Assembly (NCBI RefSeq): GCF_000379525.1
Contig: NZ_KB902430.1
Location: 60,480 to 101,171 of the forward strand
Direction of reading: 5' to 3'
Origin: Lamprocystis purpurea DSM 4197
GTDB taxonomy: Bacteria > Pseudomonadota > Gammaproteobacteria > Chromatiales > Chromatiaceae
Length of the DNA stretch: 40,692 bases
The position numbers and the translations under genes were made by a program. A model generated the notes under the pieces. The model was not told where the DNA came from. It saw only the letters and a list, made by a program, of their open reading frames with translations, and ran no database searches. Of this stretch, positions 2 through 35,040 are shown piece after piece; within the stretch, counting starts at the first letter, position 1; every line of letters starts with the position of its first letter.

Positions 2-403
2 CAGGTACGTACGGGCACCTGCGGCGTCGGGGTTGACTGCGAGGGGGTTGGTCCGCACAGCGGACCCTACGAGGGGGTTGGTCCGCACAGCGGACCCTAC
101 GGGGTGAGGGTCTCATCAGGCGAGAGGCGTGTGCTGCGCGGCGCCAGTTGGATCAACGAGGCGCAGAACCTGCGCTCCGCGTACCGCAACCACGACGATC
201 CCGGCAACCGCAACCACAACACCGGTTTCCGGCTTGCCCTAGCTCGACGGGGCGGCGGCAGTTGCCCCATGGACCAGACGCTCATCCTGTCCTGCCGCCC
301 GGCAGGCGAAAAGCACAGGGCCGGCGGTGTGTTGGTAGGGGGAGCGGATGCCTCCCGAAGGCTCGCCGTCCGGCCGCCCTCAATCGGGTGCGGCGCGCGA
401 TGA
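2..403 (+). CDS. FGE-sulfatase/C-type-lectin domain protein, 5' end outside window
   Basis: The frame is open from the left edge to a TGA at 401-403. Residues around 120-260 nt read as the C-terminal end of an FGE-sulfatase (SUMF1-like, C-type lectin fold) domain: RVLRGASW, then an Asn-rich stretch, then GFRLAL. Two in-frame copies of a palindromic repeat encode GPHSGPY just before it. After GFRLAL there is an unusual tail of about 55 residues with no recognisable domain. The stop overlaps the next start as ATGA (400-403), so the two genes look translationally coupled. The family name is from the motif; binding function rather than formylglycine chemistry is inferred, because the segment lacks the two catalytic cysteines of SUMF1. 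The Asn-rich stretch resembles a DGR variable or template repeat. Confidence 0.7.
   Translation, partial: QVRTGTCGVGVDCEGVGPHSGPYEGVGPHSGPYGVRVSSGERRVLRGASWINEAQNLRSAYRNHDDPGNRNHNTGFRLALARRGGGSCPMDQTLILSCRPAGEKHRAGGVLVGGADASRRLAVRPPSIGCGAR
41..101. repeat. Perfect tandem pair of 30-bp repeat carrying a REP-like palindrome
   Basis: The 30-bp unit 41-70 is repeated exactly at 71-100. Each unit contains the palindromic core ggtccgcacagcggacc followed by ctacg. The same core recurs at 830-851, 33308-33378 and 34967-35040. Here it is inside an open reading frame and is translated as GPHSGPY twice. Confidence 0.9.
149..226 (+). other. DGR variable-repeat-like segment A (Asn/AAC-rich)
   Basis: This is the C-terminal end of the partial FGE gene, from the Trp of GASW to the Gly of GFRL. 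Aligned without gaps to 1165-1242, it differs at 18 bases. Fifteen of those are adenines in this copy. Two of the other three (G at 194, C at 222) are explained if the shared template had A there. This is the adenine-specific signature of DGR mutagenic homing. Because it keeps AAC/CAC codons, this copy may be close to the template. Confidence 0.75.
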
Positions 404-1287
404 AGGGGCCGCCGCCCGGGCCGCCTCCGGAGCAGTTCCCCGCCTGCTGGGCCGGCGATTGGGGTGAGGACCCCTTCGGTCTGTGGCAATCGCTGATTTA
501 TCGTGGAGTGCGGCAGGCGTTTCGGTGGATTCCGCCGACGGCTGAGCCGTTTCTCATGGGCTCGCCCGAATCCGAGCATGAGCATCGCAGCGACGAGCGG
601 CAGCACCCGGTGCTCCTCACCCGCGGTTTCTGGCTGGCCGAGACCGCCTGCACCCAGGCCCTGTGGACGGCGGTGATGGGCGGGAATCCAAGTGGGTTCA
701 AAGGCGAGCGGCGGCCGGTGGAGAACGTTTCCTGGGACGATGTGCAGGGGTTCATTGACCGGCTGAATGCCGAACTGGCTGCTTTTCCGGGTCGGGTTTC
801 AGCGCAGCCTGGGGCGGTGGCGGAGGGTCGGTCCGCGCAGCGGACCCTACGGCTGCCGACCGAGGCCGAGTGGGAATATGCCTGTCGCGCCGGGACCACT
901 GGCCCATTCTCCTGCGGCGACGACATCACCCCGGAGCAGGCCAACTACGACGGCAACTTTCCCTATCGCGGTAACCGCAAGGGGCTCTATCGGCAAGAGA
1001 CCATTGAGGTGGCCTCCCTGCTGCCCAACCCCTGGGGCCTGTACGAGATGCACGGCAATGTCCGGGAGTGGTGCCGCGACTGGTATGGCGATTATCCGTC
1101 CGGGCTGGTCACTGACCCAGTCGGCCCTGACTCGGGCGAGGGGCGTGTGCTGCGCGGCGGCAGTTGGCTCTACGAGGCGCTGTACCTGCGCTCCGCGTCC
1201 CGCTACCGCCTCGGCCCCGGCCACCGCGTCCTCCACTACGGTTTCCGGCTTGCCCTAGGTCCCGAGCCCGGCCAGCCCGGCGAGTGA
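400..1287 (+). CDS. FGE-sulfatase/C-type-lectin domain protein with diversified C-terminus
   Basis: A protein of 295 aa. The ATG at 400 is chosen because it overlaps the upstream stop as ATGA. A SUMF1/FGE-sulfatase-type domain covers about residues 40-285: FLMGSP near the start, VENVSWDD, LRLPTEAEWEYACRAG, NPWGLYEMHGNVREWC, then VLRGGSW and GFRLAL. In DGR systems this fold displays variable side chains at the C-terminus, and here that segment (1165-1242) is rich in Tyr, Leu and His where the neighbouring copy has Asn. A palindromic repeat at 830-851 is inserted in frame just before the LRLPTEAEW motif. The protein has no signal peptide or membrane segment. Ligand recognition is inferred; enzymatic sulfatase activation is unlikely because the catalytic cysteine pair is absent. 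Confidence 0.85.
   Translation: MKGPPPGPPPEQFPACWAGDWGEDPFGLWQSLIYRGVRQAFRWIPPTAEPFLMGSPESEHEHRSDERQHPVLLTRGFWLAETACTQALWTAVMGGNPSGFKGERRPVENVSWDDVQGFIDRLNAELAAFPGRVSAQPGAVAEGRSAQRTLRLPTEAEWEYACRAGTTGPFSCGDDITPEQANYDGNFPYRGNRKGLYRQETIEVASLLPNPWGLYEMHGNVREWCRDWYGDYPSGLVTDPVGPDSGEGRVLRGGSWLYEALYLRSASRYRLGPGHRVLHYGFRLALGPEPGQPGE
830..851. repeat. REP-like palindrome inside coding sequence
   Basis: The core ggtccgcgcagcggacc followed by ctacg is one base different from the copies at 50-71 and 80-101. It adds residues between a helix and the conserved LPTEAEWEYA motif of the FGE domain without breaking the frame. Confidence 0.85.
1165..1242 (+). other. DGR variable-repeat-like segment B (diversified)
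   Basis: Ungapped partner of segment A (149-226). Nearly every difference falls where A has an adenine: aac to tac four times, atc to ctc, tac to tcc, aac to gtc, and so on. The conserved framework codons between them (ctg cgc tcc gcg, ccc ggc) are identical. The segment ends in the invariant GC-rich ggt ttc cgg ctt gcc, as expected at the initiation end of mutagenic homing. Confidence 0.75.
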
Positions 1288-30309: not shown

Positions 30310-30338
30310 ATCCCGCGGCGCGGCAAGGAGGGCGTTTG

Positions 30339-33300
30339 GTGACACACTGGGCCGAGGCCGACTGGGACTCGATCGTTCAGGTCACTGCCGGCCGGCCGTC
30401 CGGCAGTAAAGAGACCGTCGGGACAGGCTTCGTCGTCCAGGTCGCGGACGACGCCACCTGGGTCGTCACCTGTGCCCATGTGATCGAGGACGGCGCGCCG
30501 GACGGGCTCAGGGTCGACGGCAGACCGGCCCAGGTTGTCGGCAAGGAGCGCCCCGACATTGATCTGGCCGTCCTCAAGGTCAAGGGCCGCCTGGATGCCC
30601 GGCCTTGGGATCTGACCACCCTGAACGGCAAGGCGGCGGATATCCCCGGATGGCATGCCGTGGCGCAGGGCGAGGATCGCCAGTGTGACGTGCTGCGGAC
30701 GACGATCGGACGCAAGAAGCGTTTCTCAGGCAAGCCCGGAACCATCCAGCACGCCTGGGCGCTGGAGGTCGTGGGTTTCGCCGATGCGGACCCCCAACTG
30801 TTCGACCCGCAAGCGCCCCTGATCGACCACGGCTTCAGCGGCGCGCCGGTGATCTGTCAGGCTCAGCACGCCGTCTTTGCCGTGGCCCGCTACAAGCACG
30901 GCGACGGGAAGGCCGGCTACGCCATCTCCATCGAGCACCTGAACGCCATCTGGCCGGACGACGCCCCCAGGCCCGTCTGGCAAGACCTGCCGGGCCAGCC
31001 GCTCGACGGCCATGCCGTCCAGGTGCTCGCCGACCTCTTTTCGGCGCTCCCCGCGGGCCTGACCCTCGACGCCCTCAAGGTCCATTGCGAGCGGTGCGCA
31101 CCCCCCGGCCTCGAACTCGACTTTCCGCCCGGCGGCGACCCCTTTGCCTTTCTCTTCTGGCTGATCCGCAAGGGTCGCCTGGTGAACCGCCATCGCTTGC
31201 TCTACGACGTGCTGGCGCGCCTGGAGCCCGCGATCACGGACGATCTGAGACGACAGCGCCTGCGCCGCATCCGGGACGCCATCGCCGCGTGCGATCCGGA
31301 CCTCGACTGCACCCAGCCCGCGGCGGACGCGGGCCTCGATCATCGTTCCGAACGCATCTGGGTCGATCTGCGCCCGCGGGCAGACTCGGGCGACCTGACC
31401 CCACTGGATCGGCTGATCTGGGGCATCACCGGCGACCGTCCCGGCGGAACATCACGAGATTGGCCGCCCAGGGCTGCTGGCCGGAACGATGATCAAGGCC
31501 ATCCGCGCGCTCCCCCAGACCCGCCGGTAGGCCCGGTGGATCCGCCGATCGTGCCAACCAAGGTGCCGGTGGCTTCAAGCGCAAACACCGCTGCGATCAG
31601 CCCCGACGCCACCGCCGTGCGCCCCGTCAGCCAGTGTCCGGACCTGCAGACCCAATCCCTCTCGGATGCCCTGGACGCCGCCCGCGACGAGGAAGTGCGA
31701 CTCGTCTGTGCCGGGGCGGATGCCGGCGCGGTCCAGGCGCGGATACTGGATCTCAAGCGGCGCATCCGCGAAGGCGGGCGGTTGCGCGTTGGCGATGATC
31801 TGCTCGGTCGTTACAAGCTCGTCGCAAAGCTTGGTCACGGCGGATTCGCGACGATCTTCAAGGCGTTCGATACGCATGCGCGCCGCCTGGTCGCCCTGAA
31901 GGTCCTGCATGGCCAGTACGGCGACGACAAGAGCCGGGTGGAACGCTTTTTCCGTGGTGCCCGCAAGATGGCGGAGCTGCACCACCAGGGCATCGTCCAG
32001 GTCTTCGACTCCGACCTGGTGGATGAGGGACACTACTTCTTCGTCATGGAGTGTCTCCCCGGCGGGGATCTGCGCCAGGCCGTGCTGCGCCGCAGCGTGG
32101 CGGCCGAGGCGGCGCTGGACCTGATCCTGAGCGTGGGCGCCGCCCTGGCCTTTGCCCACGCCCGCGGGATCATCCATCGGGACATCAAGCCGGCCAACAT
32201 TGTGCTCGACGCCGCGGGGTCGCCCAAGCTCACCGACTTCGATCTGGTGCGGGCCGGCGATACGACCGGGGGCACCCGCACCGGCGCGCTCGGGACCTTC
32301 GGCTACGCGGCCCCTGAATTGCTGTCTCGGCCACAGGATGCCGATGCCCGGGCCGATGTCTACGGCTTGGGGATGACCGCCATCTTTGCCCTGTTCGGCG
32401 CGGACCCGCCCCTGCAGGAGACCCTGTTCAACGCCGCGCGCTTCATCGACCGGTTGGCGGTCCGCGCCGCGGTCAAGCCGGTCCTGTGCCGTGCCATCGC
32501 CTGGGAGATCGGTGAGCGTTATCCCGACGTTGAATCCTTCTGCACGGCGCTGGGTCAAGCGCGCCAGGCGCGCGAGCCGCGGCTGGTTGCGGTGACGTCC
32601 GACAGTGCGTCTGCTGCGCCGCCGGATGCGGACCTTCCCCAAAGGTCGCCGGCCCATGCGAACTTGCGGGAGCCCGTTCACTTCCGCGACCCTTTCACGG
32701 ATGGCTCGGGTGAGGCCCCGGAGATGATCTGGCTGCCCGGCGGCACCTTCCGCATGGGCAGCCTCGCAGGTGCCCGTTCCGACGACGAGCGGCCGGTCCA
32801 TGACGTGACCTTGAGCCACTATGCGGTCGGCAAGTATCCGGTCGCGGTCGGAGAGTTTCGCCGGTTCTGCGTTGCGACCGGCTACCGCACCGAGGCGGAG
32901 CAGGGGGACGGTGCCTCTGTGCGGACCAAAGAGGAATGGGGCAAGAAGAAGAACGCGAGCTGGCGCAACCCCTATTGTGCGCAGGACGACCGCCACCCCG
33001 TGGTCTGCATCAGTTGGAAGGATGCCCAAGCCTATTGCGATTGGCTCGGCAAGGAGACCGGTCAGACCTATGGTCTGCTGAGCGAGGCGCAGTGGGAGCA
33101 CGCCTGCGGGACGGGCAGTGTGACGCGCTACTGCTTCGGCGACGATGCGAATCAACTGGGGGACTACGCCTGGTACAGCCGCAATGCGGGTGACGGGACC
33201 CGTCCGGTCGGACTAAAGCAAGCCAATGCCTGGGGGCTGCACGAGCTGCACGGCAATGTGTCGGAGTGGTGTCGGGACTGGTACTCGGGCGACTACTACC

Positions 33301-34673
33301 AGTCGTTCGTAGGGTCCGCTGTGCGGACCGGCGCCCCCGAAGCGAGCGCGGCGCATGGTCCGCACAGCGGACCCTACGGCGACTCGCAGTCTACTCGCAC
33401 TACGGCGAGTGGCCTTGCAGTGGCTGCGAGTGGCGCTGCAGTGGCCGCGAGCAGCGGCGAGCAGCCACTGGCAACTGATCCCAGTGGCCCCGAGACGGGC
33501 TCCTGCCGGGTGGTTCGCGGCGGCTCCTGGGGCTCCGGCGCCGACGACTGCCGTTCGGCGTACCGCTACAGGTACGGGCCGTCCCTCCGCTACAGCAACC
33601 TCGGTTTCCGCCTTTCGAGGACTGGCCCTTTACACTCTTACCCTTTTACCCTTGTCGGCGTGCCACCGCCCAAGGCGCCTGCGTCGACAGTACCGGCCAC
33701 CCATCCCCGTTTCGCGCCCTATGAGGTCTTCCGCGATCCGCTGGATGGCGCGGGCCAGGACGGCGCTGCGCAGCAGGCGCTCGCGGCCCCGGAGATGGTC
33801 TATCTCCCCGGCGGGACCTTCCTAATGGGCGACGAACAAGGCGGCAGCGACGAACAGCCGGTCCATCCGGTCAGCGTCCCCGCCTTCGCCATGGGGCGCA
33901 CCCCGGTCACCTGGCGCGACTACCTGCGCTTTTGCGAGGCAACCGACAGCCACTGGCCGGAATGGTTGGAAAAGGGCGGTCAGTACCACTTGGAGACCGG
34001 CAACAACGACTATTACGCGAAGCGCGGCATCGGCCGCGAGGCGCTGGACCTGCCCGTGGTCGGCATCGGCTGGGAGGATGCCGGTGCCTACTGCGCGTGG
34101 CTGAGCGATCAGACCGGCGAGCGTTACGCACTGCCCAGTGAGGCGCAGTGGGAATATGCCTGCCGTGCCGGAGGTGCGACCCGCTGGTGTTGCGGTGACG
34201 ACGCGGCCGGGCTGGGCGACTATGCTTGGTTCAGTGAGAATGCGGGCGGCCGGCTCCATCCGGTCGGTGAGAAACGGGCCAACGCCTGGGGGCTGCACGA
34301 TACGCACGGCAACGTGTGGGAGTGGTGTGCGGACTGGTATGCGCCGGGCTACTACCAGCAACTCGCTGACGCACTGCTAGCAACCGCGAGCAGCGCCGAG
34401 CAGGCGGCGAGTGGCGGCCAGCAGCGCGCGAGCGGCCAGCGACACGCTGCCAATGCGCTTGGGATCGATGCCAGTGGAAACCCAGCAGGCGCCAGTGTCA
34501 TGCAGCAGTCTGCCAGTGTGAACCCCAGTGGCCCTGAGTCGGGCTCCGTCCGGGTGATTCGCGGCGGCTCCTGGGGCAGCACCGCCGGCGGCTGCCGCTC
34601 GGTGTACCGCGGCAGGGGCGAGCCGTCCTACCGCCGCGGCGACCTCGGTTTCCGCCTTTCGAGGACCGTATAG
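30339..34673 (+). CDS. Trypsin-like protease / EAD-like / Ser-Thr kinase / double FGE-lectin protein
   Basis: A protein of 1444 aa; GTG 30339 follows aaggaggg (30324-30331). Residues 1-215: trypsin-like domain with His47 (TCAHVIEDG), Asp75 (DIDLAVLKV), Ser167 (HGFSGAPVIC). Residues about 225-320: helical region resembling effector-associated (EAD) adaptor domains. Residues about 345-485: Pro-rich linker and helix. Residues about 489-745: Ser/Thr kinase with Gly loop LGHGGFATI, Lys521, HRDIKPAN (Asp615), DFD in place of DFG (Asp633), YAAPELL. Residues about 790-1095 and 1145-1444: two FGE-sulfatase/C-type-lectin domains (LPGGTFRMG, LSEAQWEHACG, HELHGNVSEWC, VVRGGSWG; LPGGTFLMG, LPSEAQWEYACRAG, THGNVWEWC). 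Each ends in a DGR-like variable segment. No signal peptide or membrane helix, so cytoplasmic. Interpreted as a sensor-protease-kinase of a conflict system. Frame, domains and triad are seen; function is inferred. Confidence 0.9.
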   Translation: MTHWAEADWDSIVQVTAGRPSGSKETVGTGFVVQVADDATWVVTCAHVIEDGAPDGLRVDGRPAQVVGKERPDIDLAVLKVKGRLDARPWDLTTLNGKAADIPGWHAVAQGEDRQCDVLRTTIGRKKRFSGKPGTIQHAWALEVVGFADADPQLFDPQAPLIDHGFSGAPVICQAQHAVFAVARYKHGDGKAGYAISIEHLNAIWPDDAPRPVWQDLPGQPLDGHAVQVLADLFSALPAGLTLDALKVHCERCAPPGLELDFPPGGDPFAFLFWLIRKGRLVNRHRLLYDVLARLEPAITDDLRRQRLRRIRDAIAACDPDLDCTQPAADAGLDHRSERIWVDLRPRADSGDLTPLDRLIWGITGDRPGGTSRDWPPRAAGRNDDQGHPRAPPDPPVGPVDPPIVPTKVPVASSANTAAISPDATAVRPVSQCPDLQTQSLSDALDAARDEEVRLVCAGADAGAVQARILDLKRRIREGGRLRVGDDLLGRYKLVAKLGHGGFATIFKAFDTHARRLVALKVLHGQYGDDKSRVERFFRGARKMAELHHQGIVQVFDSDLVDEGHYFFVMECLPGGDLRQAVLRRSVAAEAALDLILSVGAALAFAHARGIIHRDIKPANIVLDAAGSPKLTDFDLVRAGDTTGGTRTGALGTFGYAAPELLSRPQDADARADVYGLGMTAIFALFGADPPLQETLFNAARFIDRLAVRAAVKPVLCRAIAWEIGERYPDVESFCTALGQARQAREPRLVAVTSDSASAAPPDADLPQRSPAHANLREPVHFRDPFTDGSGEAPEMIWLPGGTFRMGSLAGARSDDERPVHDVTLSHYAVGKYPVAVGEFRRFCVATGYRTEAEQGDGASVRTKEEWGKKKNASWRNPYCAQDDRHPVVCISWKDAQAYCDWLGKETGQTYGLLSEAQWEHACGTGSVTRYCFGDDANQLGDYAWYSRNAGDGTRPVGLKQANAWGLHELHGNVSEWCRDWYSGDYYQSFVGSAVRTGAPEASAAHGPHSGPYGDSQSTRTTASGLAVAASGAAVAASSGEQPLATDPSGPETGSCRVVRGGSWGSGADDCRSAYRYRYGPSLRYSNLGFRLSRTGPLHSYPFTLVGVPPPKAPASTVPATHPRFAPYEVFRDPLDGAGQDGAAQQALAAPEMVYLPGGTFLMGDEQGGSDEQPVHPVSVPAFAMGRTPVTWRDYLRFCEATDSHWPEWLEKGGQYHLETGNNDYYAKRGIGREALDLPVVGIGWEDAGAYCAWLSDQTGERYALPSEAQWEYACRAGGATRWCCGDDAAGLGDYAWFSENAGGRLHPVGEKRANAWGLHDTHGNVWEWCADWYAPGYYQQLADALLATASSAEQAASGGQQRASGQRHAANALGIDASGNPAGASVMQQSASVNPSGPESGSVRVIRGGSWGSTAGGCRSVYRGRGEPSYRRGDLGFRLSRTV
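33308..33378. repeat. Inverted REP-like pair inside the first FGE domain
   Basis: The complement of the core (cgtagggtccgctgtgcgg) at 33308-33329 and the forward core (ggtccgcacagcggacc) at 33357-33378 flank 27 bases. The forward copy is read as GPHSGPYG, the same peptide as the copies at 41-101. It lies in the loop before the variable segment and keeps the frame open. Confidence 0.9.
33531..33605 (+). other. DGR variable-repeat-like segment C (FGE domain 1)
   Basis: Codons after GGSW up to LGF, protein residues about 1065-1089. Compared with segment D (34575-34649) it differs at 19 bases; 17 are explained by adenines in a common template with aac at the variable codons, and two (cgt/cgc, gcg/gtg) are not. 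Framework codons such as tgc, tcg, tac cgc, agg, ccg tcc are kept. Confidence 0.75.
34575..34649 (+). other. DGR variable-repeat-like segment D (FGE domain 2)
   Basis: C-terminal segment of the second lectin domain, residues about 1413-1437, ending 24 bases before the stop codon. It is Gly/Arg-rich (RGRGEPSYRRGD) where segment C has Tyr codons and the downstream relic E has Asn codons. This is the pattern expected from independent adenine mutagenesis of one template. Confidence 0.75.
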
Positions 34674-34791
34674 CTTGGTACTTTTCCCCTCTTACCCTCG
34701 TCCGCGCCGGGATGCCCGGCACCGCTCCGATGCAGCACTGCGTCCCGGCGCCCGGCGACGCGGCGGTCATCTGATGCTGGTCCGGGTCTTC

Positions 34792-34865
34792 ACTGCCGTT
34801 CGGCGTACTGCAACAGGAACGCGCCGTCCAATCGCAACAGCACCCTCGGCTTCCGCCTTTCGAGT
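34792..34865 (+). other. Non-coding template-repeat-like relic E
   Basis: Outside any gene, 118 bases after the stop. It starts actgccgttcggcgtactgc and ends ctcggcttccgcctttcgag, matching C and D. At variable codons it has aac, aac, aat, aac, agc, acc: adenines where C and D carry T, G or C. Position downstream of the variable repeat is where DGR templates normally sit. It has about five non-adenine differences from the inferred template, so it is a decayed template or a fragment of a third lectin module. No further gene is seen in 34674-35272. Confidence 0.6.
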
Positions 34866-34966
34866 ACAGCGCATCCGCCCGTTGGGTGCCGTCTACGGAT
34901 TGGTGCATCCGCGGACAAGGTCGGGCGCTATACCGATCGCATCACGCGGATGCCAGAGCGGCGGAC

Positions 34967-35040
34967 GGTCCGCACAGCGGACGGTCCGCATAGCGGACCC
35001 TACGATAACACCGTAACCCGTAGGGTCCGCTAAGCGGACC
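34967..35040. repeat. Cluster of ggtccgc...gcggacc palindromes
   Basis: A partial core at 34967-34982 is followed by a full one (ggtccgcatagcggacc, 34983-35004) and an inverted one (35019-35040) separated by 14 bases. This is the same family as 41-101, 830-851 and 33308-33378, here in non-coding DNA. Confidence 0.88.

What the first reader, a model, noticed from the sequence alone, without database searches (positions are those of the whole stretch)
33531..34649. One protein with two DGR-like variable segments
The two lectin domains of the 1444-aa protein end in segments C and D. Of 19 base differences, 17 are explained if a common template had adenine (aac at seven or more codons). Framework codons stay fixed. 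Two independently variable surfaces in one chain would multiply binding diversity or allow two ligands. The inferred template is distinct from that of the left-edge FGE pair, so two template families may coexist.
Basis: partly seen in the sequence, partly recalled or inferred. Interest (0 to 1): 0.85.

Follow-up and report, generated by a model that had tools for sequence, protein, structure and literature searches.

The report
Two stranded DGR variable segments
A sensor-like bacterial protein carries two segments once rewritten by a targeted-mutation retroelement whose reverse transcriptase has been deleted from the locus and was not found intact elsewhere in the genome, so its two binding surfaces are probably no longer changing.

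Summary
Against an RT-linked template of a sister genome, C differs at 19 of 30 adenines and 8 of 90 other bases, D at 20 of 30 and 6 of 90. They are variable repeats (VRs) of a diversity-generating retroelement (DGR).

New here: the window holds two template-repeat (TR) relics, T (34792-34902) and A (102-303). About 1.9 kb with accessory gene, reverse transcriptase (RT) and TR start is missing between the gene and T. No intact DGR RT was found in this draft genome, only a fragment; five loci with open target genes lack the RT. In seven RT-bearing sister cassettes, 13 VRs match their TR at 957 of 958 non-adenine bases; four VR-relic comparisons here differ at 21 of 244.

Most likely a decommissioned DGR. 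C and D themselves show little framework drift, so their stop is recent or only inferred. Two VRs in one chain is already published; RT loss across a genome's DGR loci is the new variant.

The parts
30336..34673 (+). Target gene, 1445 aa: trypsin-like peptidase, protein kinase and two FGE/C-type-lectin domains
   Evidence: Trypsin_2 aa 29-180, Pkinase aa 493-692, FGE-sulfatase (3 stretches)
32712..33626 (+). First FGE domain
33504..33617 (+). Variable repeat C
   Evidence: 19/30 template adenines changed, 8/90 others
33783..34670 (+). Second FGE domain; by sequence its second-best solved relative is TvpA of Treponema denticola (2y3c)
34548..34661 (+). Variable repeat D
   Evidence: 20/30 template adenines changed, 6/90 others
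34774..34793 (+). Stub of the DGR accessory gene: first 20 bases, joined straight to the template
   Evidence: window 34774-34793, L070 494-513; homology of the L070 region to the C347 accessory protein; HRDC domain of the C347 protein
34792..34902 (+). Template-repeat relic T with its template-type 3' flank; first ~50 bases of the template lost
   Evidence: 111-base match to the RT-linked templates of G004 C259 and C347; ends TCGAGTAC like those templates, while C and D read TCGAGGAC
102..303 (+).
   Evidence: 94% identical over 125 bases to G005 C746:6365-6489, which follows an RT; match continues to 303 with the template-type flank
1150..1254 (+). Variable repeat B of the second class, in the 379-aa FGE gene 148-1287
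   Evidence: 14/21 adenines of the G005 template changed, 6/84 others
33313..33373 (.). Inverted GGTCCGC..GCGGACC palindromes inside the coding linker of the first FGE domain
   Evidence: 8 matches in the window, 0 in 100 shuffles

Best explanation
C and D are two variable repeats of one target protein, written by adenine-directed mutagenic retrohoming of the DGR type. Accessory gene, RT and template start were deleted next to the gene, leaving the template relic T; sister genome G004 carries the same junction, so the deletion is most simply ancestral. Repeats at this locus were still rewritten afterwards, so RT and template must then have acted in trans. In this lineage no intact DGR RT is found, so both binding surfaces are most likely no longer rewritten, while the gene stays open. 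Shown by sequence: VR and TR identity, the deletion, no intact RT in the assembly, framework drift in other DGR classes of this genome. Inferred: trans action, present inactivity of C and D, and a role as sensor with peptidase and kinase output.
For: Adenine bias against RT-linked templates. Codon positions 15, 12, 0 of 18. T has the template-type end and flank. About 1.9 kb missing relative to G004 C259 (L070 514 to about 2420) and the same junction in G004 C126. RT searches of the own genome with PF00078, one DGR RT and a six-RT profile: a piece on C179 that I read as group-II-intron-like, and a DGR RT fragment on C1 covering profile positions 10-126 of 335 (translation). RT missing at five loci. 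VR against own TR: 1 of 958 non-adenine mismatches for 13 VRs of seven RT-bearing sister cassettes, 21 of 244 for four comparisons here. VR-VR pairs on C111 differ at 8, 8 and 5 non-adenine sites, 0, 0, 0 in G004 C139. C and its positional partner C126 v1 differ at 16/28 adenine sites and 7/86 others, D and v3 at 15/28 and 7/86, which implies rewriting after the shared deletion. dN/dS 0.26-0.42 in four comparisons of target-gene parts.
Against: The assembly has 211 contigs; an RT could lie in an unassembled piece. C and D differ from G004 C126 v2 at only 2/86 and 1/86 non-adenine sites and from each other at 3/86, although dS next to them is 0.22-0.36: they show little framework drift, so any freeze is recent, or the stretch was exchanged recently. 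The 12/96 mismatches of C and D to T may then be mostly drift of T or another template: T has C where both VRs have A or G. G004 C71, a pair with no RT found on its contig, also differs at only 3. VRs written from different templates can differ without a freeze (C126 v2 against v1 and v3: 6 each). Positional partners in C126 may not be strict orthologs: by framework both C and D resemble v2 most.
Confidence: 0.72

Rival explanations
1. C and D are still diversified in this strain by an RT and template in trans that the assembly missed.
For: Trans action very likely existed in the lineage: C126 in G004 has the same local deletion, yet its repeats v1 and v3 are identical at 86 of 86 non-adenine sites while differing at 16 of 28 adenine sites. 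C and D show little framework drift. C, D, E2, C126 v2 and G006 C147 carry A or G at one base where T and the C347 template have C, so a further template probably existed that I did not find. One contig (C154) starts inside an FGE match.
Against: Three kinds of RT search found none intact. Four other loci of this genome lack the RT within continuous contigs. Other classes here show framework drift. The first 4 kb of C154, C179 and C168 and the 4.2-kb contig C52 gave no RT match (best E 0.83).
Confidence: 0.18
2. No DGR was involved: C and D are ordinary paralogous FGE loops that vary because the loop is unconstrained.
For: Unrelated FGE proteins vary at the same residues (ends of 46 translated relatives).
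Against: Third codon positions unchanged in 18 of 18 AAC codons while positions 1 and 2 changed 27 times; 957 of 958 non-adenine sites fixed in RT-bearing sister cassettes. E3, another domain in C183, shows what ordinary divergence looks like: 16/27 adenine and 33/93 other sites, third position changed in 4 of 9 codons.
Confidence: 0.02
3. The variation was written by a DGR elsewhere and reached C and D by domain shuffling or gene conversion among FGE genes, not by retrohoming into this gene.
For: The locus is mosaic: its trypsin part matches a trypsin/VMAP-C gene in G004, its kinase part other loci in G000 C183 and G003 C566. The noncoding stretch 34674-34839 differs at only 7/166 from G004 although dS is 0.22-0.36 nearby. 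D differs from C126 v2 at 11/28 adenine and 1/86 other sites.
Against: Conversion would bring adenine-site alleles and flanks along; here the two domains are 483/683 identical before the repeat but 83/86 at its framework sites, as expected of a short copied segment with fresh adenine changes.
Confidence: 0.08

Closest known systems
DGR loci 4 and 5 of Thiohalocapsa PB-PSB1 (PMC10907252; abstract, part of the introduction and sections 5, 7, 10, 13, 16 and 18 read)
   Same: Purple sulfur bacterium; single target genes with tandem VR-bearing C-type-lectin domains; VMAP setting (as in the G004 ortholog); RT gene replaced by MITE-like repeats; degenerate loci with missing machinery.
   Different: There each class keeps one complete locus and eight of nine loci are diversified in nature. 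Here no class was found to keep an intact RT in the genome.
Marichromatium purpuratum 984 DGR (PMC3521204, passages; PMC10907252 section 13)
   Same: One ORF with tandem FGE-sulfatase domains, each with a VR.
   Different: Three VRs, reported as a DGR in a table keyed by RT (its row was not among the passages I saw); here two VRs and no RT found.
Pseudogulbenkiania NH8B distal targets (PMC3521204, passages)
   Same: Target ORFs far from the working RT beside a strongly mutated RT; local RT loss explained by trans support.
   Different: There a working RT remains in the genome.
TvpA of Treponema denticola (PDB 2y3c)
   Same: Second-best solved relative of the second FGE domain, aligned through the VR.
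   Different: One variable FGE domain, not a peptidase-kinase chain with two VRs.

Membership tests
Diversity-generating retroelement (working cassette) | VR differs from TR almost only at TR adenines | tested here: met
   against RT-linked templates of a sister genome and between C and D
Diversity-generating retroelement (working cassette) | Template repeat present with a distinct end | tested here: inconclusive
   T is a 5'-truncated relic with the template-type end, 5/48 and 7/48 non-adenine mismatches to C and D
Diversity-generating retroelement (working cassette) | Intact DGR reverse transcriptase in the locus or genome | tested here: not met
   only a fragment on C1 (profile positions 10-126 of 335); draft assembly
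Diversity-generating retroelement (working cassette) | Accessory protein (Avd or HRDC type) | tested here: not met
   20-base stub only; the intact gene in G004 C347 has HRDC
Diversity-generating retroelement (working cassette) | Retrohoming activity | not testable with these tools
   needs population reads or an experiment
FGE-type C-type-lectin variable protein | FGE domain with the VR at its C-terminal end | tested here: met
   by sequence; no structural model was obtained
VMAP ternary conflict system | VMAP-C domain next to the peptidase | tested here: not met
   present in the G004 ortholog, no match in the window protein at E 0.01
VMAP ternary conflict system | MoxR-like ATPase and vWA partner genes | not tested
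   the neighbouring genes were not scanned for these

The most novel reading that the evidence does not exclude
A lineage that relied on several DGR classes has shed every DGR reverse transcriptase, locus by locus, while keeping the target genes open, so an evolvable sensor repertoire became a fixed, inherited one, possibly because hypermutation cost more than it gained once a useful set was reached.
Probability: 0.28. Interest if true: 0.65.

Novelty: new variant of a known kind. Interest (0 to 1): 0.46.

Why it matters
The function of cellular DGRs is still open. A genome that keeps the targets but seems to have lost the mutator, beside close relatives that keep both, is a natural comparison: does the target still matter when it can no longer change? 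Framework mismatches (1 of 958 in RT-bearing cassettes against 21 of 244 here) suggest a simple sign of whether a DGR locus is alive. If the deletion is ancestral, its presence in two genomes with continued change afterwards is natural evidence that DGR machinery acts in trans.

Tried and rejected
RVT_1 in the own genome: one hit, which I read by eye as group-II-intron-like (no family search of it). T as another VR: rejected on its template-type end and flank. T as the exact template of C and D: rejected. A as an FGE domain end: replaced by a template relic. Framework drift as proof that C and D are frozen: dropped when one search showed that both lie within 1-2 of 86 sites of C126 v2; confidence was lowered for this from a drafted 0.78 to 0.72. 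The genome-contig scan kept 80 distant FGE loci; of 48 segments that I chose, 46 translated without a stop and 36 went into alignment A2. Literature: six searches were answered, with lists capped at 20 of 33, 2 of 2, 10 of 44, 7 of 7, 8 of 17 and 8 of 1,221 papers; in these listings I saw no report of DGRs in Thiodictyon or of a genome with DGR targets and no RT. The library lacks most subscription papers, and I opened three papers only.

Rows left out of counts: one search uses seven RT-bearing cassettes with 13 VRs. The RT-bearing loci L162, L163, L164 and L109 gave no VR/TR pair under my motif filter and were not counted. G006 C253 (L073), whose RT matches only in pieces, was not counted; its VR differs from its TR at 4 of 90 non-adenine sites. 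L071 was not computed. In one search C and D contribute 12 of 96 and B and VR0 9 of 148 of the 21 of 244 mismatches.

Full report
Check of the observation. The ORF 30336-34673 encodes 1445 aa with a trypsin-like peptidase (aa 29-180), a protein kinase (aa 493-692) and FGE-sulfatase domains. The first domain is 483 of 683 identical to the second before the repeat, but over the repeat (33504-33617 and 34548-34661) only 3 of 86 non-adenine sites differ against 19 of 28 adenine sites. In the nine codons that are AAC in both templates, positions 1, 2 and 3 changed 15, 12 and 0 times of 18.

Real templates. The own genome is G000, 6.9 Mb in 211 contigs; its genus includes G007, of which 3000 bases are 100% identical to plasmid NZ_CP020372 of Candidatus Thiodictyon syntrophicum. 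In the same-genus genome G004, contigs C347 and C259 carry target gene, accessory gene, RT and template in this order; the C347 accessory protein has an HRDC domain. Against the C259 template C differs at 19/30 adenines and 8/90 other sites, D at 20/30 and 6/90; against the C347 template C 15/27 and 11/93, D 18/27 and 11/93.

Template relic T. At 34792-34868, outside any FGE domain, lies a third copy. Its match to both G004 templates runs on to 34902, and its end is TCGAGTAC as in these templates, while C and D read TCGAGGAC. Just before it, the first 20 bases of the accessory gene (34774-34793) are fused to the template. Relative to C259 about 1.9 kb are missing: the rest of the accessory gene, the RT and the first ~50 bases of the template. 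G004 C126, which matches two stretches upstream at 92% and 88%, has the same junction; there the match to T stops at 34839. The deletion is most simply ancestral to both.

Rewriting after the deletion. C against its positional partner C126 v1 differs at 16/28 adenine sites and 7/86 others; D against v3 at 15/28 and 7/86. Within C126, v1 and v3 differ at 16/28 and 0/86. By framework, C and D resemble C126 v2 most: 2/86 and 1/86, with 20/28 and 11/28 adenine sites different. So repeats of at least two template types sit in this locus in two species after the local RT was lost; rewriting in trans is the simplest reading, exchange between FGE genes a rival. C, D, E2 (C183), C126 v2 and G006 C147 share four template marks that T and the C347 template also have, but carry A or G at one base where those two have C, so their template was probably a further one, which I did not find.

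No intact RT in this genome. Searches with PF00078, the C347 RT and a profile of six DGR RTs give only a fragment on C1 (267768-268121) covering profile positions 10-126 of 335, without the catalytic core by my reading, and the piece on C179. In a family sample 57 of 116 genomes match the RT profile at 1e-10, a count that includes the G000 fragment and probably group II intron RTs. Five target loci of G000 lack the RT: (1) the finding's locus; (2) the left edge, where G005 C746 has VR, RT, TR, VR and G000 has VR, a Y1-transposase-like ORF below Pfam's cut-off, a 114-base repeat array, TR relic A, VR; (3) C183, with a 42-residue accessory stub and no RT or TR found; (4) C111, which lacks the ~2 kb that hold accessory gene, RT and TR in G004 C139; (5) C112, with a ~1.7-kb loss of RT and TR against G004 C198. 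Target ORFs at these loci are long and open: 1445, 1015, 1617, 985 and 784 aa.

Framework mismatches as a sign of life. In seven RT-bearing cassettes of G004, G005 and G007, 13 VRs differ from their own TR at 172 of 290 adenines and 1 of 958 other bases. In G000, C and D against T (12/96) and B and VR0 against A (9/148) together differ at 46 of 68 adenines and 21 of 244 other bases (Fisher 2.5e-14). VR-VR pairs: G000 C111 8, 8 and 5 non-adenine differences against 0, 0, 0 in G004 C139; G000 left edge 5 against 0 in G005. For C and D themselves the sign is weak: 3/86 apart, and 1-2/86 from C126 v2, although dS of nearby coding parts is 0.22-0.36. Their mismatches to T may mostly be drift of T or another template. 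If they are frozen, this is recent. Target-gene parts compared with G004 or with C183 have dN/dS 0.26-0.42 (four comparisons), so the genes look kept, though most of that time may predate the loss.

What it probably does. The second FGE domain's second-best solved relative by sequence is TvpA of T. denticola, aligned through the VR. The trypsin part matches a 610-aa protein in G004 that also carries VMAP-C, which puts the ortholog in the VMAP setting where Dore et al. propose DGR-diversified antigen sensors (PMC10907252 section 13). In the window VMAP-C is not found, and peptidase, kinase and two lectin domains are one chain. My inference: binding by either FGE domain is signalled to the kinase and peptidase of the same chain.

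Against what is known. Tandem VR-bearing FGE domains in one ORF are known in Marichromatium and Thiohalocapsa, as are degenerate loci and support in trans (PMC3521204 passages; PMC10907252 sections 5, 7, 10 and 13). What I did not see in the listings of six searches is a genome with several DGR target classes and no intact RT. As a working DGR this locus fails two defining features (RT, accessory gene), so I file it as a decommissioned DGR locus, a variant of a known kind.

Limits. The RT absence rests on a draft assembly. No structure was obtained. The low divergence (7/166) of the noncoding stretch 34674-34839 beside dS 0.22-0.36 is unexplained and, with the closeness of D to C126 v2, could point to a recent exchange of this end of the locus.

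Noticed in passing
window 34674-34839: Noncoding stretch with T differs at only 7/166 bases from G004 C126 although synonymous divergence nearby is 0.22-0.36; constraint, conversion or recent transfer.
   Followed up: partly
window 33313-33373; also 50-96, 830-846, 34983-35040: GGTCCGC..GCGGACC palindromes, eight matches in the window and none in 100 shuffles; two lie inverted inside the coding linker of the first FGE domain, and this stretch matches several sister loci.
   Followed up: partly
window 30336-32411: The 1445-aa gene looks like a fusion: its trypsin part matches a separate trypsin/VMAP-C gene in G004, its kinase part loci in G000 C183 and G003 C566.
   Followed up: partly
L067 (G007:C1:1033000-1050000): In the three-contig genome G007 a locus with three VRs of the same class shows no template of this class in two DNA searches (one 73% match beside another RT was not examined), and its VR pairs differ at 3-5 non-adenine sites: perhaps another orphan.
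   Followed up: partly
L009:13750: A middle FGE domain of the 1617-aa C183 protein (E3) has the VR motif but ordinary third-position divergence; a PilP-like segment lies inside the same protein.
   Followed up: no
G000 genome: 53 FGE-sulfatase matches in one genome, most of them not examined for VRs.
   Followed up: no
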